Positions 55,914-64,000 of a stretch of 64,000 bases of DNA are shown piece by piece. The notes under the pieces were generated by a model. That model saw only the letters and a program-made list of their open reading frames with translations, had not been told where the DNA came from and ran no database searches. The stretch's first letter is position 1. The number at the start of each line of letters is the position of its first letter. This stretch comes from Rhodanobacter sp. LX-99 (GTDB taxonomy: Bacteria; Pseudomonadota; Gammaproteobacteria; Xanthomonadales; Rhodanobacteraceae), in the NCBI RefSeq assembly GCF_018599185.1, contig NZ_JAHFVL010000001.1:1922001-1986000 (forward strand), in the 5' to 3' direction. Position numbers and translations under genes: made by a program.

Positions 55914-56630
55914 TCAGCTGGCCGGCAGGGGGATCGCCGGCGCGCTCGGCAGGAAATCACCAAGCTTACGCTCGCGCAGATCGCCGATGCACGCGATCGT
56001 GAGGTCCGCTGCCGGATCGATGGTTTCGCCGGCGCTGTCGGCCGCGTAGTGGCCCTGGCGCACGAACACGGTGGTGAGCTTGTGGCCCAGGCGCTGCTTC
56101 ATCGCGGCCAGGACGTGCGGCTTGTCGTCGACCATCACGTAGTGCGCGGCCGGGTAGCGCTGCTGCATCGCGACCAGCATCTGCTGCTTGTGCACGTAGA
56201 TCAGTACCTCGCCACGCAGCGCGGCCCACAGCCCGGCGCGCTGGATCTTGCGCGGCTGGAACACCACGTCGCCGTCGGACAGGATCGCCGTGGGCCCCAG
56301 CGTGCGCAGGTGCGCCACGGTTTCCAGCGCGTGCGGGTAGAGCCGGTCGGCGAACGGATAGTCCAGCAGGTAGTTGGACATCTGCAGCAGCGAGGGGTCG
56401 TTGTCCAGGCCGGTGCGGAAGCGCTGCAGCGCGCCCAGGTAGTCGGCAAAGCCGGACTGCTGGCGCAGCTCCTCGTAGATCGCCCAGTAGCGTGCGCGCC
56501 CGGCCGCGCCGAACGCCGCCTCCAGGGTGTCGCCGAGGTCGGCGCCGAAGCGGTCGTTGTCGAGCAGGGTGTTGTCCACGTCGAGCAGGAACACCACCGC
56601 GGCGGCCTCGGACGCATGGTTGCTCAACAT
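55914..56630 (-). CDS. HAD-family phosphatase in the zwf operon
   Basis: 238 residues. Motif I is [13 protein letters not shown] (nucleophile Asp in DVD), motif II is in [12 protein letters not shown], and the motif IV region reads [10 protein letters not shown]. The cap is inserted after motif I, as in subfamily IA. The substrate is unknown; a sugar phosphate is likely from the neighbours. It occupies the place where pgl (6-phosphogluconolactonase) often follows zwf, but HAD enzymes are not lactonases. The start overlaps the zwf stop by 7 bp. Confidence 0.85.
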
Positions 56631-58030
56631 GGCTTGCCCTCCTCCACCTGCGGATCGTGCCAGCCCTCGTCGCCGCTGACGATACGTGCCGCTTCGGGCG
56701 GACCCCAGCTGCCCGGCTCGTAGAATCCCACCGGCCCTTCGCGGGCCAGCACGCGGTCGACCACCGCCCACGCCGCCTCGACGCATTCGTCGCTGGTGAA
56801 CAGCGCGTTGTCGCCGCGGATCGCGTCGCCGAGCAGGCGCTCGTACGGCGATTTCTCCGGCGCCAGGTCATGCCGCACGACCAGTTCCACCGCTTCGCCA
56901 CGCATCTCCTCGCCGGGCTGCTTCACCCGCATGCCCTCGGCGATGATCACCTCCGGGCTGAGCCGGAAGCGGAAGTAGTTCGACTGCTCCGCGCCGATCG
57001 CGTCGAATACCGACAGCGGCGGCGTCTTCATGTCCACCATCACCTGGGTGGTGGTGATCGGCAGCTTCTTGCCGGCGCGGATGTAGAACGGCACGCCGGC
57101 CCAGCGCCAGGTGTCGATGTGCAGGCACAGCGCCACGAAGGTCTCCACGTTCGAATCGGCGGCCACGCCCTGCACGTCGCGGTAGCCCTTGAACTGGCCG
57201 CGCACCACCTCGGCCGGGTCGAGCGGGCGCATTGCGCGGAACAGCCGCAGTTTCTCGGCGCGCAGCGCCTCCGGGTCGTTGCCGATCGGCGCATCCATCG
57301 CCAGCAGCGAGGTCACCTGCAGCAGGTGGTTCTGCAGCACGTCGCGGATCGCGCCGACGCCCTCGTAGAACGCGCCGCGGCCGTCCACGCCGAACTGCTC
57401 GGCCATGGTGATCTGCACGCGGTCCACGTAGCGGTTGTTCCACACCGGCTCCAGCACGGTGTTGGCGAAGCGGAAGTACAGCAGGTTCTGCACCGGCTCC
57501 TTGCCCAGGTAATGGTCGATGCGGAAGATCGCCGACTCCGGGAACACCGCGTGCAGCGTGCGGTTGAGCGCCTGCGCCGAGGCCAGGTCGCGGCCGAACG
57601 GCTTCTCCACCACGATCCGCGCGCCGTCCGCGCAGCCGGCCTGCTGCAGGTTCTTCGCCACCACGCCGAACAGCTTGGGCGGGATCGCCAGGTAGTGCAG
57701 CGGCCGCTGCGCCTCGCCCAGCGCCTGCTTCAGCCGCTGGAACGTGGCCGCGTCGTTGTAGTCGCCGTCGACGTAGCGCAGCCGTGCCGCCAGCTTCGCG
57801 AACGCCGCCTCGTCGACGGCGCCGCCCTGCTCCCGTGCCGCCTGCGCCAGGCTGTCGTGCGCGCGCTGGCGCAGCTGCTCCACGCTCCAGCCCGAATGCG
57901 CCACGCCGATGATCGGCAGGTCCAACCCGTCACGCAGCATCATCGCCTGCAATGCCGGAAAGATCTTCTTGTAGGCCAGGTCGCCGGTGGCGCCGAAAAA
58001 AACCAGGGCATCCGAGCGGGGTGTCGGCAT
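56624..58030 (-). CDS. zwf: Glucose-6-phosphate 1-dehydrogenase
   Basis: 468 residues. First step of the oxidative pentose phosphate pathway. The coenzyme motif [10 protein letters not shown] starts at residue 13 and the substrate-binding signature [13 protein letters not shown] is intact. The ATG at 58028-58030 is preceded by GGAGAGAG at a good distance; further upstream sequence is not homologous to the family. First gene of the operon zwf-HAD-tal-pgi-pgm-tkt. Confidence 0.96.
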
Positions 58031-58489
58031 GGGGATGACTCTCTCCGTAGGGTTGCGGGCTGCGTTGCCCGACGTGGCGCGCAGGGCGCGCGCAACGGCA
58101 TGGCGCGGTTCCGCCAACATGCCGGACATCGGGTTCGCTTTCCAGCCTGCACGCCGGCAGGTTAAGTCGATGCATAAGCCAGGCCGCGCGGGAGTTGACG
58201 CGACCGGGGCAGGAACCTGCGCTGGCGCTTGAACGACAGCGCAGGTTCCGTCGGGGAATTTTCGCAGGCGCGCGGCACGGCCGGGCGACACCTGCGACAG
58301 CCGGGAATCGCTCCGTCCTGCGTGCATGGCTGACCAAACGAAGGAACCGGCCTATCGCTGGACGGGGGGCTTCCACGAAGACCGTCTGCGCGCCCTGCCT
58401 TTCACAGGCAAGGTTGACCGTGCGTCCCATGGCGCGCGTCCGATGCACCGTGCCCGCCGGTGCGACCATGCTTTGCCACTCGGTGAGCG
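58031..58489. other. Non-coding gap between zwf and the cassette array
   Basis: No convincing gene on either strand. It should contain the zwf promoter. The one clear structure is the inverted repeat at 58212-58249. No attC-like sequence was found beyond the stop codon of the last cassette gene at 58490. Confidence 0.6.
58212..58249. repeat. Perfect 13-bp inverted repeat upstream of zwf
   Basis: Arms GGAACCTGCGCTG and CAGCGCAGGTTCC separated by 12 bases, followed on neither side by a T-run. It could be a regulator site, a terminator without U-tract or a repeat element. Confidence 0.7.
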
Positions 58490-58912
58490 TCACCCGGGGG
58501 AGCGTTCTCGAATTCGATCTGTGCCCTCGATGGCGTTGCCCAGTTCCTGGCCATACGCCACTTCGAGAGTGTGGCCATCGGGGTCTCGAATAAGTGCCCA
58601 GTACCCGACTGGCGGCCCCGAATCTTCTGGCTCACGGATAAGACACTGTTCTTGCCGGGCAAGCTGGCATAGCTGATCGACGCCTTGGCGCGACGACACG
58701 CCGACGCCTAGATGGGCCATCGGAAGGAGGGGTTCTATCGGTCCCGAGGTTTCAATAAGAACGACGGCGAAAGGCCTGGTGCGATCACTGACCCAAACCA
58801 CACCCGGACGCCGGTGCACGGCTTGCATGTTGCCGTACTTTGCATAGAACGCTTCGCTCGCTGAAAGCGAATGGACTGGCAATGCGATGTGGGTGAGGCC
58901 GACGTCTGTCAT
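58490..58912 (-). CDS. VOC (glyoxalase/dioxygenase fold) protein, terminal cassette
   Basis: 140 residues of the vicinal oxygen chelate superfamily: THIALPVHSLSASEAFY at the start, AHLGVGV in the middle, and RDPDGHTLEVAYGQE at the end. H8, the His of AHLGV and the Glu of LEVAYGQE are likely metal ligands. Substrate unknown; family members include glyoxalases and antibiotic resistance proteins. It lies at the distal end of the cassette array, and no attC follows its stop codon. AGG of the degenerate attC core is 7 bases upstream of the ATG. Confidence 0.82.
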   Translation of the reverse strand: MTDVGLTHIALPVHSLSASEAFYAKYGNMQAVHRRPGVVWVSDRTRPFAVVLIETSGPIEPLLPMAHLGVGVSSRQGVDQLCQLARQEQCLIREPEDSGPPVGYWALIRDPDGHTLEVAYGQELGNAIEGTDRIRERSPG

Positions 58913-58917
58913 AAGTG

Positions 58918-58974
58918 GCCTGGCGCAGGATTCAAGGGGCGGCGAAGCCGTCCGCCTTGAACGGGATGTTAGGT
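58918..58974 (-). repeat. attC site 1 (degenerate outer core)
   Basis: 57 bp. The R'' core holds the stop codon of the GFA gene (GTTAGGT on the plus strand). The opposite core is decayed to GCCTGGC instead of GCCTAAC. The inner inverted repeat (GGCGGCGAAGCCGTCCGCC) matches the other sites. Confidence 0.8.
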
Positions 58975-59418
58975 GCCGAGCGTGACCAGCTCAACATCCG
59001 GAACCCACAGTTGCGACCATCGTGCGATCTTTTCGCCAGGGGCCAGCCATTGCGGCGAAGCCGGGACCGCATTCCCAAAGCCGGTGGGCCCCTCCAGTGA
59101 CCGTGCGTTGACAGCTCCGTAAATGCGGGCATTGTGCTCGAAGACGACGGCAACCAGCACCCCGCACCGGCCGCACAGCAGGAATTCGGCGGTATTTGAT
59201 CCCTGCCGATACCGCCGCAGCGTATCTGGGCTCTGCATGATGACGGACAGTTGCCCGGCCGGATCCGAAACGTAGGCGGCACCGTGCTTTTGACAGAACG
59301 AGCAGTCGCAGGCCCGAGGAACCGTGCTCGCCGGCTCCAGTGCGGTTGAAAAGGCCACGCGAAGCTGACCGCAGTGACAGCCACCCCGAAACGCAAATGC
59401 ATTGCTCAATGGCGACAT
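58969..59418 (-). CDS. GFA-family (CENP-V/GFA) zinc protein, cassette
   Basis: 149 residues with the GFA cysteine pattern: GGCHCGQLR, CDCSFCQKHG and LCGRCG, which bind zinc. The family is named after a glutathione-dependent formaldehyde-activating enzyme, but most members have unknown activity. Its TAA stop lies inside the attC core at 58968-58974. A second, different GFA gene occurs further along the array at 60874. Confidence 0.85.
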   Translation of the reverse strand: MSPLSNAFAFRGGCHCGQLRVAFSTALEPASTVPRACDCSFCQKHGAAYVSDPAGQLSVIMQSPDTLRRYRQGSNTAEFLLCGRCGVLVAVVFEHNARIYGAVNARSLEGPTGFGNAVPASPQWLAPGEKIARWSQLWVPDVELVTLGT

Positions 59419-59431
59419 CGTTGCACCTGGA

Positions 59432-59489
59432 GCCTGACGCCGGGAGTCAGGCGGGCGGCGAGGCCGTCCGCCTTGAAGAATGGTCAGAC
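59432..59489 (-). repeat. attC site 2
   Basis: 58 bp with cores GCCTGAC and GTCAGAC in place of GCCTAAC and GTTAGAC. The compensating changes in both cores keep the ends complementary. The TGA stop of the ABM-like gene lies inside the R'' core. Confidence 0.78.
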
Positions 59490-59798
59490 GGCATTTTCGA
59501 TGGCCGTCACGACGAAATGTTGAACCAACGGCTCGAACCCCAACAAGTAGTCTTGATCTTCAGGGTAGTACTTGGCCTTGAGCATATCGTCTCCCGCGAA
59601 AGCACGAATGCTCTCCTCCGATTCCCAATGCGTCACGGTCAGGAAGTGCGTAACCTCAGCCTCGTCTCGCCGAAGCACGGCAACGCTCAGGTTGCCGGGA
59701 ACCGAGCGGTAGTCTGGAACGGCCCGCTGCTCGAGGAAGCTCGCATAGGCATCGGCCTTCGAGCGTGGTGTGACCCCGTGCCACATGCGGCAAATCAT
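59484..59798 (-). CDS. ABM-like dimeric alpha-beta barrel protein, cassette
   Basis: 104 residues similar to antibiotic biosynthesis monooxygenase-domain proteins: ICRMWHGVTPRSKADAYASFL, then VAVLRRDEAEVTHFLTVTHWES. Such proteins are small dimeric barrels, some of them haem or quinone monooxygenases; activity here is unknown. The ATG at 59796-59798 has its own GGAG 6 bases upstream; a TTG at 59810 would add four residues. Confidence 0.75.
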   Translation of the reverse strand: MICRMWHGVTPRSKADAYASFLEQRAVPDYRSVPGNLSVAVLRRDEAEVTHFLTVTHWESEESIRAFAGDDMLKAKYYPEDQDYLLGFEPLVQHFVVTAIENAV

Positions 59799-59814
59799 GA
59801 CAATCTCCAATGTC

Positions 59815-59871
59815 GTCTAACGCTGGAGTTGAGCGGCGGAGCAGCCGTCCGCCTTGAACGAATGGCTAGCC
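59815..59871 (-). repeat. attC site 3, sharing a core with site 4
   Basis: 57 bp from GTCTAAC to GCTAGCC, with the conserved inner arms GGCGGAGCAGCCGTCCGCC. It has no gene of its own: the next attC begins in the same core. It may be an empty cassette or the result of a deletion. Confidence 0.78.
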
Positions 59872-59911
59872 ATCTGCCGGGGCCTCCGTCAGCTGCAACG
59901 ACTCGTTAGCC
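59865..59911 (-). repeat. attC site 4 (short, divergent)
   Basis: About 47 bp from the shared core GCTAGCC to GTTAGCC. The inner sequence differs from the common type of this array. The TAA stop of the DUF120 gene is inside the right core. Confidence 0.6.
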
Positions 59912-60382
59912 GGCGACCGCGGATGGTCGTGCCGCCTCTGTCGTTCCGCCGGCAGGCACCTCCAAGGTTACCTCGTCGCCGTCCTCGAGCCGAAAGGCTG
60001 CCCGCAACCCGACCGCCGCCACGATCTCGACCACCCACGGGTCAGGCCGATCTCGGGCCGCCGTCGTTGTCGTCCACAGAAACGCGCGCTGCCCACCCAG
60101 GTTCCGCAGTCGGCACGGCAGCAGCAAGATGTCCCGCTCACCACCGTACTCCTCGCGCCCAAACCAGACCAGGTGGGGCTGCAACTCGGGTGCGTGCCAT
60201 TCGAACACCTGCGGAAGCGCGAGGTTCAGCGAGCCGGGGAACACCGGCATACCCAGCTTCCGGCTGTAGGCGGCGTTGAACCGCTGCAGCCAGCGCGACG
60301 CATCGCCTTTGCCGGGCTGCACGCGTCCGACCAGCACTCGCGATGTCGAGAACTCTGCAGGCATTTCCGAAGACGTATGCAT
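59906..60382 (-). CDS. DUF120 (CTP-dependent riboflavin kinase-like) protein, cassette
   Basis: 158 residues. The stretch VLVGRVQPGKGDASRWLQRF, then LGMPVFPGSLNLAL, resembles the G-x-V-x-x-G-x-G and PGTLN motifs of archaeal RibK (DUF120), which phosphorylates riboflavin with CTP. The C-terminal EDGDEVTLEVP also fits. Whether this bacterial cassette protein binds flavin or a nucleotide is unknown. The ATG at 60380-60382 (MHTSSEM) is preferred; an ATG at 60412 would read through half of an attC. Confidence 0.7.
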   Translation of the reverse strand: MHTSSEMPAEFSTSRVLVGRVQPGKGDASRWLQRFNAAYSRKLGMPVFPGSLNLALPQVFEWHAPELQPHLVWFGREEYGGERDILLLPCRLRNLGGQRAFLWTTTTAARDRPDPWVVEIVAAVGLRAAFRLEDGDEVTLEVPAGGTTEAARPSAVAG

Positions 60383-60383
60383 T

Positions 60384-60407
60384 GGCCGGTTGACCGAGAT
60401 GTCAGGT
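60384..60407 (-). repeat. attC half site upstream of the DUF120 gene
   Basis: The sequence GGTTGACCGAGATGTCAGGT matches the right half of other attC sites (CTTGAACGAGATGTTAGG) with a few changes. The left half is missing, so cassette mobility at this junction is probably lost. Confidence 0.6.
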
Positions 60408-60421
60408 GCCATGCCGCATCC

Positions 60422-60793
60422 TTACACCGCCCTTCCTTCGACGTGACTTGAAAGAATGGTAAGGACCCCACCGCCCGGTTCGCGAACGGTGAAGCGCTCG
60501 TGATGAATTGCTGGAACATTCTCTATTTCCGTTGGCACAAACCCTGCCGCAGAGAGCCGTCGATGAAACGCGCGAAGGTCATCAACCATCAGATCGAACG
60601 GTGCGACTCCACCGGGCACGGTGCCCTTGGGGAAGATTAGCAGGTGCGTACCACCCCTAAGCTCGAAGATGGCCATCTCGGAACCCCGGAACACAGAGCG
60701 CATTCCAAGTGTGACCATGAAGTCGGCGCTCTCCGGGATTCGATCGCTTTCGAGAACAACGTGCCCGATCCAGATTTCCGGTAGAGAGTTCAT
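60422..60793 (-). CDS. VOC-family protein, cassette
   Basis: 123 residues with VOC features: WIGHVVLESDRIPESADFM, RGGTHLLIFP and PFDLMVDDLRAFHRRLSAAGF, ending in REPGGGVLTIL. His and Glu metal ligands are only partly conserved. Unrelated in detail to the first VOC cassette. A GTG at 60802 could extend it by three residues. No complete attC follows its stop codon, only the half site at 60384. Confidence 0.8.
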   Translation of the reverse strand: MNSLPEIWIGHVVLESDRIPESADFMVTLGMRSVFRGSEMAIFELRGGTHLLIFPKGTVPGGVAPFDLMVDDLRAFHRRLSAAGFVPTEIENVPAIHHERFTVREPGGGVLTILSSHVEGRAV

Positions 60794-60819
60794 ACCACGC
60801 ACACACCCGATTTATGGTA

Positions 60820-60879
60820 CCTAAACGCCTGAATTAAGCCGCGCCGCGAAGCGGCGTCGACTTGAATGAATTGTTAGAC
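60820..60879 (-). repeat. attC site 5 (aadA-like type)
   Basis: 60 bp with core GTTAGAC, which holds the GFA gene stop codon, and inner stem GCCGCGCCGCGAAGCGGCGTC. Read on the minus strand (GTCTAACAATTCATTCAAG...) it closely resembles, from memory, the attC of the aadA resistance cassettes. This fixes cassette orientation as minus. Confidence 0.88.
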
Positions 60880-61266
60880 CGCATCCGCAGCACCTTCTTG
60901 CATGAACTGCTGGGCCGCGGACTCCCAGTTTTGCCCGTCAAATGGGCGAATCTTCAGACTGGATAGGTCAACACCGTCAATACAGCGCAGATTTACGACC
61001 CACCTCGTTGGGGCGATTCTCGGGCGGCTGAAGGGGCTGGTGCCACACTCTTTGCAGAAGTAGTGCTTGGCCGTCATGGTGCCAAATTGGTAGACGCCGA
61101 GGTCGGCCTCCCCAGACAGAATGCGAAAGTGCGCATTGTCGGTGCCGTGCCAGATGGCACCTTTCATGTGGCAAATCGAGCAGTTGCACTCAATGGCCGT
61201 GCCAATACTACCGTCAACCTCGAAAGTGACGCGCCCACAATGACACGAGCCCTTGTGCGTTTGCAT
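60874..61266 (-). CDS. GFA-family zinc protein, cassette
   Basis: 130 residues. Zinc motifs GSCHCGRVTFEV, CNCSICHMKG and CKECGTSPF are complete; IRPFDGQNWE near the end is typical. Probably a better GFA representative than the one at 58969. An AAGGA site lies 8 bases upstream of the ATG, inside the cassette. Function unknown beyond metal binding. Confidence 0.88.
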   Translation of the reverse strand: MQTHKGSCHCGRVTFEVDGSIGTAIECNCSICHMKGAIWHGTDNAHFRILSGEADLGVYQFGTMTAKHYFCKECGTSPFSRPRIAPTRWVVNLRCIDGVDLSSLKIRPFDGQNWESAAQQFMQEGAADAV

Positions 61267-61285
61267 GCCGGAATCCTTGAGCGCG

Positions 61286-61345
61286 GTCTAACGCCTGAAT
61301 CAAGCCGAGCCGCGAAGCGGCTTCGGCTTGAATGAATTGTTAGGC
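61286..61345 (-). repeat. attC site 6 (aadA-like type)
   Basis: 60 bp from GTCTAAC to GTTAGGC, nearly identical to site 5 in its inner stem (GAGCCGCGAAGCGGCTTCGG). The TAA stop of the DNA glycosylase gene lies in the right core. Confidence 0.88.
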
Positions 61346-61780
61346 GCCACCCGACGCCCGCTCCCATGATGCCACTGGTCCAGGTTGTCGGCGAAACAGT
61401 GGATGGCACGCTGGTGTAATCACATTGCTCCAGTGTGTGAACACGGTTGGATTGCGGGCCGCCAGCTTGTGCTGCAAATGGGTCCACTCATACGCGAGTT
61501 GACCGGAGCTGACTGGGATGACTTGAACGGCCCGAACAGGCCCGACCTTGGACCGGTCGAAGGAATAACCGCGCTTAGTGGCCTCGTCATGGACTGACGC
61601 CAGATACGAGTTGATGGCCAAGCGCGAGTGAGGGTGCGCTTTGAACCGCTCCAGCTGAGGATGATTGGTGTAGCCGCGCGTCTCGTTGCGTAGAACGGCC
61701 TTTGCCAGTAAGGCCTCGCGCCATAGGGCCACTAAACCCTGTGGATCGAGATACTTTGGGTGCAATGACCAGAGACGCAT
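61340..61780 (-). CDS. Pyrimidine-dimer DNA glycosylase (T4 endonuclease V-like), cassette
   Basis: 146 residues of the Pyr_excise family: MRLWSLHPKYLDPQGLVALW, then REALLAKAVL and HPQLERFKAHPHSRLAINSYL. T4 endonuclease V uses its N-terminal amine as nucleophile and a Glu near residue 23; E22 in WREALL is the likely equivalent. It would repair UV-induced dimers. The core of attC site 7 supplies AGGTG in front of the ATG. Confidence 0.85.
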   Translation of the reverse strand: MRLWSLHPKYLDPQGLVALWREALLAKAVLRNETRGYTNHPQLERFKAHPHSRLAINSYLASVHDEATKRGYSFDRSKVGPVRAVQVIPVSSGQLAYEWTHLQHKLAARNPTVFTHWSNVITPACHPLFRRQPGPVASWERASGGA

Positions 61781-61788
61781 GAAGTGGC

Positions 61789-61848
61789 ACCTAACGCTGG
61801 AGTTAAGCGGCGCGCGGTACGCGCGTCCGCTTGGACGAGTAGTTAGGG
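61789..61848 (-). repeat. attC site 7
   Basis: 60 bp from ACCTAAC to GTTAGGG; the hairpin tip reads GCGCGCGGTACGCGCGTCCGC, a variant of the common stem. Confidence 0.85.
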
Positions 61849-61855
61849 CGCTGGC

Positions 61856-62188
61856 TCACAGACCGCCCCGCATGGCCAAGCCAAATAGACGTGCAGCCTC
61901 CATCGTGCTGCTTGGGCCGACGTAAAACACTTGGCCCGCAGCCACGCACACGACAAAAAGCAATTGCGAACCAAGAAACAGTGCCGCGTGCGATAGCCAG
62001 CGACGAGGTGAAGATCGCGAGCGCACCAAAACAACAGTGAGACCAATCGCGATGGCGGACCAAGCAAAGGCCTGCTTGACCCACACGTAACCACCAAACC
62101 ATGCGAACGCGCCAAGCCAGAAGCCACCGACTGCAAGCAAGGTGAATCCGATTGCTGTCGAGACGCGCGAGGATGAGTGGGTATCCAT
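61856..62188 (-). CDS. Small membrane protein, cassette
   Basis: 110 residues with three or four predicted helices (about 11-30, 34-55, 65-90). No family recognised. The ATG is 3 bases from attC site 8, so AGGG of the core is the only ribosome-binding candidate. The TGA stop lies 7 bp outside attC site 7. Confidence 0.72.
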   Translation of the reverse strand: MDTHSSSRVSTAIGFTLLAVGGFWLGAFAWFGGYVWVKQAFAWSAIAIGLTVVLVRSRSSPRRWLSHAALFLGSQLLFVVCVAAGQVFYVGPSSTMEAARLFGLAMRGGL

Positions 62189-62190
62189 AG

Positions 62191-62247
62191 CCCTAACGCT
62201 GGAGTTAAGCGGCGGCGAAGCCGTCCGCCTTGAACGAGTGGTTAGGC
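62191..62247 (-). repeat. attC site 8
   Basis: 57 bp from CCCTAAC to GTTAGGC with the common inner arms GGCGGCGAAGCCGTCCGCC. A good reference copy of the main attC type of this array. Confidence 0.9.
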
Positions 62248-62270
62248 CGAAAATAGCTGAAAGAGCCACG

Positions 62271-62564
62271 TCAGGACGGCCGCAAAATAATGGCATAGCC
62301 GACTAAGGAAAGTACCCCTTGGGCCGGCGTGAACTTGCGGCGATATGTGACCCGGCTGCCCATAGGACCAAGGATTTTTCGGAAGTTAATCGGTGCCAAG
62401 TACCAAAGCGGTGCAACAACCAGGAACCCGAGACTCGCAACAAGAAGCGAGGTCTTGCTTGTGTGCTCCCAAGCGAAGAGAAGGGATGCGGAAATGAGTA
62501 GAGCAATCGCTAGGCTAGCTATAGCCGAACTCTTGGGTGCGCTGGTTGTGTCTTGATCGTCCAT
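62271..62564 (-). CDS. Small membrane protein, cassette
   Basis: 97 residues. Two or three hydrophobic segments (about 13-31, 38-58, 82-95) with a basic stretch RVTYRRKF between. No family recognised. AGG of the attC core GTTAGGC stands 8 bases before the ATG. Confidence 0.72.
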   Translation of the reverse strand: MDDQDTTSAPKSSAIASLAIALLISASLLFAWEHTSKTSLLVASLGFLVVAPLWYLAPINFRKILGPMGSRVTYRRKFTPAQGVLSLVGYAIILRPS

Positions 62565-62570
62565 GTGTGA

Positions 62571-62627
62571 GCCTAACGCTGGAGTTAAGCGGCGGCGTAG
62601 CCGTCCACCTTGAACGAGATGTTAGCG
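62571..62627 (-). repeat. attC site 9
   Basis: 57 bp from GCCTAAC to GTTAGCG, main type. Confidence 0.9.
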
Positions 62628-62640
62628 CGCAACCTTACAG

Positions 62641-62922
62641 CTACGATAGCGCCAGAATGGCCATGAAAACCAAGGCCAGAACTACCGTGATTGTCATGGA
62701 GTGCTTGATGTAGATGTTGTACCACCGTGAGCTCTCCTGGGGTGTTAGAAGGCGTAGATACATGGGCACGTAGCGCAACGGTCCAAAGTTGAAGAACGCA
62801 TCGCTCCCAACTTTGCCGCCAGCGTCGTTTACCCGCAAAAGAACGACGCAGAAATACAGGGCCGTGAACAGCACGATGTCAGCGGCTAGGGCGATCCAGC
62901 TGTAGATGAGCAGCGTCGACAT
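62641..62922 (-). CDS. Small membrane protein, cassette
   Basis: 93 residues. Two helices (about 4-28 and 74-92) flank a polar loop with LRYVPMYLRLLTPQESSRW. No family recognised. The ATG lies 4 bases from attC site 10. A longer frame running upstream crosses that attC and is rejected. Confidence 0.72.
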   Translation of the reverse strand: MSTLLIYSWIALAADIVLFTALYFCVVLLRVNDAGGKVGSDAFFNFGPLRYVPMYLRLLTPQESSRWYNIYIKHSMTITVVLALVFMAILALS

Positions 62923-62925
62923 GAG

Positions 62926-62981
62926 CGCTAACGCCTGAGTTAAGCGGCGGCGAAGCCGTCCGCTTGGACGAGGAGTTAGAC
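62926..62981 (-). repeat. attC site 10
   Basis: 56 bp from CGCTAAC to GTTAGAC. The arm CGCTTGGACGAGGAG differs slightly from the main type. Confidence 0.88.
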
Positions 62982-63179
62982 GGTTGCGACGCAGCACGCT
63001 CGGGCGACGATGTGGGCGCACGACGAACGCGAAGGTTGAGCAACCAACCACCCCAAAACTGCCAGCTCTGAAAGCTCAGGCTTGCGACGACACTGCGCGA
63101 AATGCTGCGGCGGCGACGGACGACAAGCCAGCGCGAAGCTGAGCGAAACACACGATACGACAAACCAACACGAGCTGCC
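62982..63179. other. Cassette without a convincing gene
   Basis: About 200 bp between attC sites 10 and 11. A minus-strand frame from a TTG at 63163 runs through attC site 10 and has no ribosome binding site; no plus-strand frame stands out. It may be a non-coding cassette, hold a promoter or small RNA, or carry a decayed gene. Confidence 0.6.
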
Positions 63180-63236
63180 GACTAACGCTGGAGTTAAGCG
63201 GCGGCGAAGCCGTCCGCCTTGAACGAGTAGTTAGAG
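63180..63236 (-). repeat. attC site 11
   Basis: 57 bp from GACTAAC to GTTAGAG, main type. Confidence 0.9.
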
Positions 63237-63246
63237 CGCACGCCAC

Positions 63247-63537
63247 TCACAGCATGCTCCAGATAACAGCGATTGCGGGTAGAAAGCCTAACGCAGCGCA
63301 AACGCAGGAACGAACTTTGGCTGCAGTAAAACTGAAACCGGAAAGACAAAGTGCAATCAAGATGCACACAACACCGACGCCCAGTACTGCAATTGATAGG
63401 TGCCGAGCGGCTTCGATTTGTGCGCGCGGAACAGAGGGCGAGGGATCACCGAGTTGCGACGTGACGCCGAAGAAGGCGAGCAGCCAACCAGCCACAACCA
63501 GAATCAAAGCCAGATTTGCTGCCGTAGTCTGCTTCAT
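63247..63537 (-). CDS. Small membrane protein, cassette
   Basis: 96 residues with about three helices (about 8-27, 47-66, 75-95). No family recognised. GTTAGAGCCT before the ATG offers GAG as ribosome binding site. The sequence is clearly lower in GC than the chromosome to the left. Confidence 0.72.
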   Translation of the reverse strand: MKQTTAANLALILVVAGWLLAFFGVTSQLGDPSPSVPRAQIEAARHLSIAVLGVGVVCILIALCLSGFSFTAAKVRSCVCAALGFLPAIAVIWSML

Positions 63538-63540
63538 AGG

Positions 63541-63598
63541 CTCTAACGCTTGAGTTAAGCGGCGGCGGTACGCCGTCCGCTTGGACGAAATGTTAGCC
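63541..63598 (-). repeat. attC site 12
   Basis: 58 bp from CTCTAAC to GTTAGCC, with tip GGCGGCGGTACGCCGTCCGC. The TAA stop of the partial gene lies in the right core. Confidence 0.88.
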
Positions 63599-64000
63599 TT
63601 CATCGCGAGGCTTTTGTGGCAAGAAGGCTTTGCCCTTAACGGCGTATTCGGCGAGAGTTTTTAGCCGCCTAAAGTGGGCCGCGAGCAATTTCGCTGTAAC
63701 AAGAGGGCTTCCAGTTCTCTGATTGAGCTCATCAAGTCGTTGAAAGCCAACATAATTGGCTAGATCCTGTGTTAGTCCTTGAAGCTCTTGTATCTGAGCC
63801 CTCGTAAGACGAATCTGCTCGAGTTTGGCCTTCGCTGCCTCAGAGTTAATGTTGTAAATCGTTCTTTGGAGTGCGGAGTAACACTTTGTTACCGTCGTGA
63901 TAGAGCCCGCAATTGCAGCGACAGACGCCGCCACTTGCACCGCTGGATTGAGGTTTAAAAGAAGATCAATCCAACCGGGGGAGGCATACCTTATTTCTGT
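63593..64000 (-). CDS. Unknown cassette protein, 5' end outside window
   Basis: At least 135 codons are open to the right edge; a GTG at 63940 is a possible internal start, but the frame continues without a stop. The visible part has a short hydrophobic stretch (VQVAASVAAIAGSITTV) followed by helical, charged sequence (AKAKLEQIRLTRAQIQELQG) that could form a coiled coil. No family recognised. GC content is low for this genome. Confidence 0.6.
   Translation of the reverse strand, partial: TEIRYASPGWIDLLLNLNPAVQVAASVAAIAGSITTVTKCYSALQRTIYNINSEAAKAKLEQIRLTRAQIQELQGLTQDLANYVGFQRLDELNQRTGSPLVTAKLLAAHFRRLKTLAEYAVKGKAFLPQKPRDEG

What the first reader, a model, noticed from the sequence alone, without database searches (positions are those of the whole stretch)
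58490..64000. Integron gene-cassette array next to zwf, integrase side to the right
Twelve sites of 47-60 bp with RYYYAAC/GTTRRRY-like ends and an imperfect inner palindrome alternate with small genes, all on the minus strand. The aadA-like sites fix orientation: each gene is followed by its attC on the minus strand, so attI and intI should lie beyond 64000. Without them the array would be an integrase-less attC cluster (CALIN). Most genes have no recognised function.
Basis: partly seen in the sequence, partly recalled or inferred. Interest (0 to 1): 0.8.

Follow-up and report, generated by a model that had tools for sequence, protein, structure and literature searches.

The report
Chromosomal integron with broken integrase
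A bacterium of the Rhodanobacter group carries an old gene-capturing element, a chromosomal integron, whose capture enzyme gene is now broken; the kind is known, but the array holds two copies of a small gene-less cassette of unknown role that recurs in related bacteria.

Summary
An attC covariance model trained only on other genomes finds 11 sites in the window, all at 58918-63598 on the minus strand, and none elsewhere in the 64 kb. Seven more sites follow, to window-equivalent 66578.

intI is broken: a net 146-bp internal loss against relatives shifts the frame, and no second integron integrase was found in the genome. This is a sedentary chromosomal integron between zwf and a large glycosyl-hydrolase-like gene. 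The platform recurs in relatives while cassette content differs, much like the ilvD integrons of Xanthomonas (PMC12444791).

The least ordinary part is a gene-less cassette, present twice (98% identical). Matches of 64 bp or more occur in 20 of 233 genomes of the family. In 29 copies with both ends the core is 199-203 nt, although identity falls to 65%. Tests for coding and promoters gave no signal above shuffles; tests for RNA structure were mixed.

The parts
56624..58033 (-). zwf, glucose-6-phosphate dehydrogenase: left chromosomal flank of the array
   Evidence: TIGR00871 472 bits, cut-off 400.6
58490..58912 (-). terminal cassette c1, glyoxalase/VOC-like; no attC of its own found; its end lies in DNA that in relative G009 belongs to a cupin gene
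   Evidence: PF00903; alignment with G009; Cupin_2 in G009
58918..58974 (-). attC a1, degenerate
   Evidence: covariance model 48.2 bits
58969..59418 (-). cassette c2, GFA-type protein
   Evidence: PF04828 33.2 bits, cut-off 24.3; present in G009
59432..59489 (-). attC a2, degenerate
   Evidence: 45.6 bits
59484..59798 (-). cassette c3, ABM-domain protein
   Evidence: PF03992; at 80-94% identity in 8 other genomes of the 45 searched in the genus
59815..59871 (-). attC a3; composite, a second partial left end reaches 59911
   Evidence: 65.6 bits; sequence
59906..60412 (-). cassette c4, CTP-dependent riboflavin-kinase-like (DUF120)
   Evidence: PF01982 34.4 bits, cut-off 25; homologues
60417..60466 (-). 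doubtful or decayed attC (a5)
   Evidence: sequence only; fold z -1.09; not found by the model
60422..60802 (-). cassette c5, glyoxalase/VOC-like
   Evidence: PF00903 24.4 bits, cut-off 20.6
60819..60879 (-). attC a6, aadA-like subtype
   Evidence: 47.1 bits; plasmid matches
60874..61266 (-). cassette c6, GFA-type protein
   Evidence: PF04828 54.7 bits
61286..61345 (-). attC a7, aadA-like subtype
   Evidence: 50.7 bits
61340..61780 (-). cassette c7, pyrimidine-dimer-glycosylase-like (Pyr_excise)
   Evidence: PF03013 87.4 bits
61789..61848 (-). attC a8
   Evidence: 67 bits; fold z -4.04
61856..62188 (-). cassette c8, small protein, DUF2157-like below cut-off
   Evidence: 22.8 bits, cut-off 32.4
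62191..62247 (-). attC a9
   Evidence: 83.4 bits
62271..62564 (-). cassette c9, small protein of unknown function
   Evidence: no family over cut-off
62571..62627 (-). attC a10
   Evidence: 78.4 bits
62641..62922 (-). cassette c10, small protein of unknown function
   Evidence: no Pfam match
62926..62981 (-). attC a11, belongs to the gene-less cassette
   Evidence: 72.6 bits; fold z -4.07
62981..63181 (-). gene-less cassette core, copy b (copy a at window-equivalent 65538-65738)
   Evidence: 98% identical copies; family
63180..63236 (-). attC a12
   Evidence: 81.9 bits
63247..63537 (-). cassette c12, small protein of unknown function
   Evidence: no family
63541..63598 (-). attC a13
   Evidence: 69.2 bits; fold z -3.07
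63593..64000 (-). cassette c13, runs on to window-equivalent 64219; matches PADLOC PD-T4-10_B
   Evidence: 7.1e-33; 116 proteins incl. itself, mostly about 200-230 aa

Best explanation
This is a sedentary chromosomal integron of a bacterium of the Rhodanobacter genus group, with an intI - attI - cassette array layout between a large glycosyl-hydrolase-like gene and zwf. While IntI was active it inserted circular cassettes at attI, so the newest cassettes should lie next to intI and the oldest next to zwf; that order is inferred. Later intI lost a net 146 bp and its reading frame. No second integron integrase was found in this genome, so the array is probably fixed now unless an integrase acts in trans. 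Several distal attC sites look decayed, and the zwf-side end was rearranged into a neighbouring cupin gene. Shown: attC sites, orientation, attI-like block, broken intI, recurring flanks, differing content. Inferred: past activity, order of acquisition, present immobility.
For: 18 attC in the array by a model trained on other genomes. Of seven sites folded as bottom strand, three fold far better than shuffles (z -3.1 to -4.1). Two pieces match integron integrase TIGR02249 at positions 1-195 (266.3 bits, cut-off 265) and 248-314. Relatives G009, G014, G018, G019 and G034 read 331-332 aa open over the aligned stretch. An attI-like block with the core CGCTWAGTAGACCCC lies upstream of intI in all 12 genomes aligned. 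zwf and intI lie together in 4 of 15 relative regions, and the glycosyl-hydrolase-like gene and intI in 8 of 15. Array GC is 52-62% per kb against 64-73% in adjoining windows. attC score falls with distance from intI (Spearman -0.67, p 0.002, n 18).
Against: No expression or recombination data. Four of the seven sites folded are weak or not better than shuffles (a20, a1, a2: z -1.7 to -2.1; a5: -1.1), and for the two sites also folded as top strand the scores are alike, so the fold test does not single out the bottom strand. The score decline is partly a subtype effect, since a6, a7 and a14 are aadA-like. In 11 of 15 relative regions zwf was not seen with intI; many of these stretches end at contig ends or may be other integrons. 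The intI deletion rests on one assembly. Pc was not mapped.
Confidence: 0.95

Rival explanations
1. A CALIN: an attC cluster without an integrase, from which any integron platform is long gone or never existed here.
For: No intact integron integrase was found in the genome; a separate 3-attC cluster on C2 is of that kind.
Against: intI, in two pieces, begins 634 bp beyond the last attC in the canonical orientation, with an attI-like block before it, and relatives have an open intI in the same layout.
Confidence: 0.04
2. A mobile (class 1-like) integron recently brought in on a transposon or plasmid.
For: aadA-like attC sites resemble those on many plasmids; 2528 plasmid records are hit by the array query.
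Against: The first intI piece scores 207.3 against a cut-off of 435 for the NF011946 integrase model (one piece of a broken gene, so weak on its own). The platform sits beside the same genes in relatives. No plasmid record covers 80% of the array; the 20 listed cover 1-4%.
Confidence: 0.01
3. Ordinary interspersed or REP-like repeats between genes, not recombination sites.
For: The sites are short, palindromic and repeated.
Against: They are on one strand, between successive genes, have attC ends, lie beside intI, and cassette content differs between relatives.
Confidence: 0.01
4. The gene-less cassette is only a decayed gene spread by hitch-hiking, with no function.
For: No coding signal; no promoter signal above shuffles; no covariation above a tree-based null; ORFs without a meaningful Pfam match.
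Against: 29 cores of 199-203 nt; divergence clustered more than in any of 2000 column shuffles; several copies per genome and four genera; some pair-count measures favour an RNA fold.
Confidence: 0.4

Closest known systems
Xanthomonas chromosomal integrons at ilvD (PMC12444791; abstract and passages read)
   Same: Chromosomal platform fixed beside a host gene, variable cassettes, frequent inactivation of intI, CALINs elsewhere in the genome.
   Different: Here the neighbours are zwf and a glycosyl-hydrolase-like gene, in the Rhodanobacter group. No Rfam match for an sRNA was found; symE was not searched by name.
'Xanthomonadales-like' attC class (PMC8352920; abstract and passages read)
   Same: Sites a6 and a14 give matches of about 91-95% to attC of aadA5, aadB and aacA4-type cassettes on plasmids; a7 is of the same subtype by sequence. 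Their covariance model was not run here.
   Different: The word Rhodanobacter occurs 0 times in that main text.
Gene-less promoter cassettes of Vibrio (PMC11014356; abstract and passages read)
   Same: Short cassettes without an evident gene.
   Different: Here a sequence family shared by four genera; no sigma70-like promoter above shuffles; promoter activity untested.
sRNA-Xcc1 cassette of Xanthomonas (as described in PMC12444791; original paper not read)
   Same: Non-coding element in cassettes shared by several species.
   Different: No Rfam match in the gene-less copies tested.

Membership tests
Integron | attC sites in an array, one orientation, hairpin-forming | tested here: met
   folds strong for 3 of 7 sites tested
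Integron | intI gene of the integron integrase family next to attI | tested here: met
   TIGR02249 pieces at C1:1989263-1990058; attI-like block in 12 genomes aligned
Integron | functional integrase | tested here: not met
   net 146-bp loss with frame change; profile positions 196-247 not matched
Integron | cassette promoter Pc | not tested
   -
Sedentary chromosomal integron | same chromosomal neighbours in relatives, variable cassettes | tested here: met
   zwf with intI in 4 of 15 regions, glycosyl-hydrolase-like gene with intI in 8 of 15; the other regions are not conclusive
CALIN | attC cluster with no neighbouring integrase gene | tested here: not met
   broken intI beside it
Class 1 mobile integron | IntI1-type integrase | tested here: not met
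   NF011946 207.3 bits on the first piece, cut-off 435
sRNA-Xcc1 | match to an Rfam family | tested here: not met
   no match of any family in 6 loci with gene-less copies at E up to 5; that Rfam holds sRNA-Xcc1 is recalled
Gene-less promoter cassette | no annotated gene and no ORF over 210 bp (definition in PMC11014356) | tested here: inconclusive
   longest ORF in core plus attC 39-83 codons, frame differs between copies
Gene-less promoter cassette | promoter activity | not testable with these tools
   consensus score about equal to shuffles

The most novel reading that the evidence does not exclude
The gene-less cassette is a functional, length-constrained non-coding element (regulatory DNA or an RNA) that integrons of the Rhodanobacter family acquire repeatedly and exchange between arrays and genera, a family not described in the papers searched.
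Probability: 0.4. Interest if true: 0.55.

Novelty: new member of a known kind. Interest (0 to 1): 0.32.

Why it matters
It adds the Rhodanobacter group to the chromosomal integrons with aadA-like attC sites; the order Xanthomonadales is one proposed source of resistance cassettes (PMC8352920). It gives a natural contrast: this strain with a broken integrase, and 11 relatives whose intI frame is open for 333-340 codons. The gene-less cassette, with 29 natural variants aligned here, could make the role of non-coding cassettes outside Vibrio testable.

Tried and rejected
Gene-less cassette as a protein: codon-substitution scores in six frames were within 1.6 SD of column shuffles, and the longest ORF changes frame between copies. 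The best was one sense frame at +1.46 to +1.56 SD; a short peptide is not excluded.

Gene-less cassette as a structured RNA: mixed. Against: the sense consensus energy was reached or beaten in 146 of 200 column shuffles; pairs changed on both sides (4) were reached by 176 of 500 shuffles and further pair types by 447 of 500; a home-made test with substitutions moved along a FastTree tree gave no significant pair (best E 10.9); no Rfam match at E up to 5. For: antisense energy was reached in only 5 of 200 shuffles; for the sense fold the percentage paired (97.1), the cells changed on both sides (11) and the covariation score were reached by 0 of 500 shuffles, and sliding the partners gave 28-47% paired. 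The tool warns that related sequences can exceed every shuffle, and the structure was derived from these same sequences.

Gene-less cassette as a promoter: mean score 9.80 against 9.57 shuffled (sense), 9.73 against 9.59 (antisense). As a derivative of attI: scores near shuffles, except G000 in array sense (22.4 against 17.3, SD 2.3), where the best stretch runs into its first cassette.

Short (about 37-40 bp) BLAST matches to the cassette in other genomes were set aside as chance; the one opened, L102, looks by eye like a protein-coding gene. The first alignment A1 mixed strands and was discarded. Rfam over the window at gathering scores gave nothing; over L008 at E up to 1 it gave two sub-threshold hits to unrelated families.

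Rows dropped: of 34 gene-less copies, 30 went into (G025c, G021c, G212 and G033, partial, left out) and 29 into A2 (G002 had no right end). Further copies in L107, L109, L114 and L123 were not added. The attC model uses 45 of 86 regex-selected sites from relatives; the regex presupposes attC-like ends, so the model is independent of this array but not of the attC idea.
Full report
WHAT IS THERE. The window is C1:1922001-1986000 of a 3.83-Mb genome in 6 contigs. So the host is a Rhodanobacter or close kin; the species is not known. I read on past the window in L008 (window position = L008 position + 58000).

attC SITES. By sequence there are 12 candidate sites in the window and 7 more to window-equivalent 66578. 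A covariance model built from 45 attC sites of other genomes finds 11 sites in the window, all on the minus strand between 58918 and 63598, and 18 in the whole array; the doubtful site at 60417-60466 is not found. Over the whole genome it finds 23, the other five being three at C2:118947-120227 and single ones at C1:634312 and C1:903363. Of seven sites folded as bottom strand (the + strand here), a8, a11 and a13 fold far better than shuffles (z -3.1 to -4.1), a20, a1 and a2 less so (z -1.7 to -2.1) and a5 hardly (z -1.1); a20 and a13 folded as top strand gave similar values. Model scores fall from intI towards zwf (Spearman -0.67, p 0.002, n 18), partly because a6, a7 and a14 belong to a different, aadA-like subtype.

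attI AND intI. Beyond the last attC comes one more cassette (GNAT acetyltransferase-like), then a block with the core CGCTWAGTAGACCCC found upstream of intI in all 12 genomes aligned, then intI on the + strand. Two pieces match the integron integrase model TIGR02249 at positions 1-195 and 248-314 of 315. Against relatives (331-332 aa open in the aligned stretch for G009, G014, G018, G019, G034) the gene lacks a net 146 bp between them, which changes the frame. I describe this and mend nothing. The other TIGR02249 matches in the genome are weak and lie in two other tyrosine-recombinase genes. In the 60-genome search, 12 genomes including this one carry an intI at 82-100% identity to the first piece; in the 11 others the frame is open for 333-340 codons.

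PLATFORM AND TURNOVER. In 15 stretches of relatives taken around intI, zwf and intI occur together in 4 (G009, G031, G025, G003; in G003 only 27 zwf residues at the stretch's edge) and the large glycosyl-hydrolase-like gene and intI in 8. Other stretches end at contig ends or do not reach; some may be other integrons. The glycosyl-hydrolase-like label is by eye; no profile was run. Of 18 protein-coding cassettes of this array, G009 (zwf 97.9% identical) shares three (c2, c3, c19), G003 two, G029 one, and the other 12 stretches none. Anywhere in the genomes of the genus, c3 is found at 80% identity or more in 9 of 45 including this one, and c19 in 6 of 45. The zwf-side end has been rearranged: G009 has a cupin gene there (Cupin_2), while here DNA matches G009 to about 58521 and again from 58940, with the glyoxalase-like c1 between. 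This would explain why the last cassette has no attC.

CASSETTE GENES. Over Pfam cut-offs (9 of 18): two VOC/glyoxalase-like, two GFA, one ABM, one DUF120 riboflavin-kinase-like, one Pyr_excise, one DUF4156, one GNAT. c13 matches the PADLOC model PD-T4-10_B over positions 144-346 of 353; it has 116 hits including itself, mostly about 200-230 aa long, so it looks like a stand-alone protein; defence is untested. c18 has 2235 hits at E up to 0.001 (120 listed); source names among them include PD(D/E)XK endonuclease domain-containing and Holliday junction resolvase, while Pfam Mrr_cat_2 is below cut-off. The remaining seven have no match over a cut-off.

GENE-LESS CASSETTE. Window 62981-63181 and window-equivalent 65538-65738 are 98% identical. 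In the family search 27 of 233 genomes had a BLAST match; 20 had one of 64 bp or more, in four genera, while seven had only matches of about 37-40 bp that I treat as chance. In a sample of 398 genomes of the order, 25 had a match, and the matches of 64 bp or more all lay in this family. An exact pattern from it matched 19 stretches in the named genome collection: 12 are Rhodanobacter or Frateuria; two are MAGs labelled Paraburkholderia and Burkholderiales with cores 94% and 92% identical to G154; the other five match only over the pattern or little more, or gave no BLAST match. BLAST found no match in plasmids or phages, and the pattern none in IMG/VR. In 29 copies with both ends the core between attC ends is 199-203 nt, with pairwise identity from 65 to 100%, mean 79%. 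Variation is clustered: no shuffle of 2000 reached the observed windowed variance. This is compatible with constraint but could also reflect recombination. Coding, promoter and attI-origin tests gave no clear signal; RNA tests were mixed; details are under tried and rejected.

LITERATURE. PMC12444791 (abstract and passages) describes the parallel Xanthomonas case, including frequent intI inactivation, CALINs elsewhere and the sRNA-Xcc1/symE cassette. PMC8352920 (abstract and passages) defines Xanthomonadales-like attC and assigns 19 of 108 resistance cassettes to Xanthomonadales. PMC9176274 (one passage) lists Rhodanobacteraceae-like integrases among prevalent environmental classes. PMC11014356 (abstract and passages) reports promoter activity in most of 29 Vibrio gene-less cassettes. 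In the listings of searches I saw no paper on a Rhodanobacter chromosomal integron or this gene-less family; the library holds open-licence papers only and most listed papers were not opened.

VERDICT. Ordinary in kind and well supported: a sedentary chromosomal integron with a broken integrase. The gene-less cassette family is the part worth a bench test.

Noticed in passing
G000:C2:118947-120227 (L149): Three further attC sites with two small ORFs between them, apparently a small CALIN-like cluster away from the main array.
   Followed up: partly
G000:C1:634312-634371 and C1:903363-903422 (L150): Two single attC-like sites outside the array.
   Followed up: no
window 63593-64000, on to equivalent 64219: Cassette c13 matches PADLOC model PD-T4-10_B (7.1e-33); the only PADLOC match among the 18 protein-coding cassettes, so no partner gene was recognised in the array.
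   Followed up: partly
L008:7797-8210 (window-equivalent 65797-66210): Cassette c18, possible PD-(D/E)XK-type protein with 2235 hits; many of the 120 listed are on short contigs.
   Followed up: partly
window 59906-60412: CTP-dependent riboflavin-kinase-like (DUF120) protein in a bacterial cassette; 587 homologues found.
   Followed up: partly
window 60819-60879 and equivalent 64266-64325: aadA-like attC sites; the array query hits 2528 plasmid records, and the 20 listed cover 1-4% of it, many beside aminoglycoside-resistance cassettes.
   Followed up: partly
L081 (G025) and L085 (G219): Tandem pairs of the gene-less cassette; identical cores in G219.
   Followed up: no
G009:C1:1564524-1570004: A second integron-integrase-like gene (65% identical) with two gene-less cassette matches within 5 kb, suggesting exchange between integrons of one genome.
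   Followed up: no
L114, L123: Gene-less cassettes in MAGs labelled Paraburkholderia and Burkholderiales; binning error not excluded.
   Followed up: no
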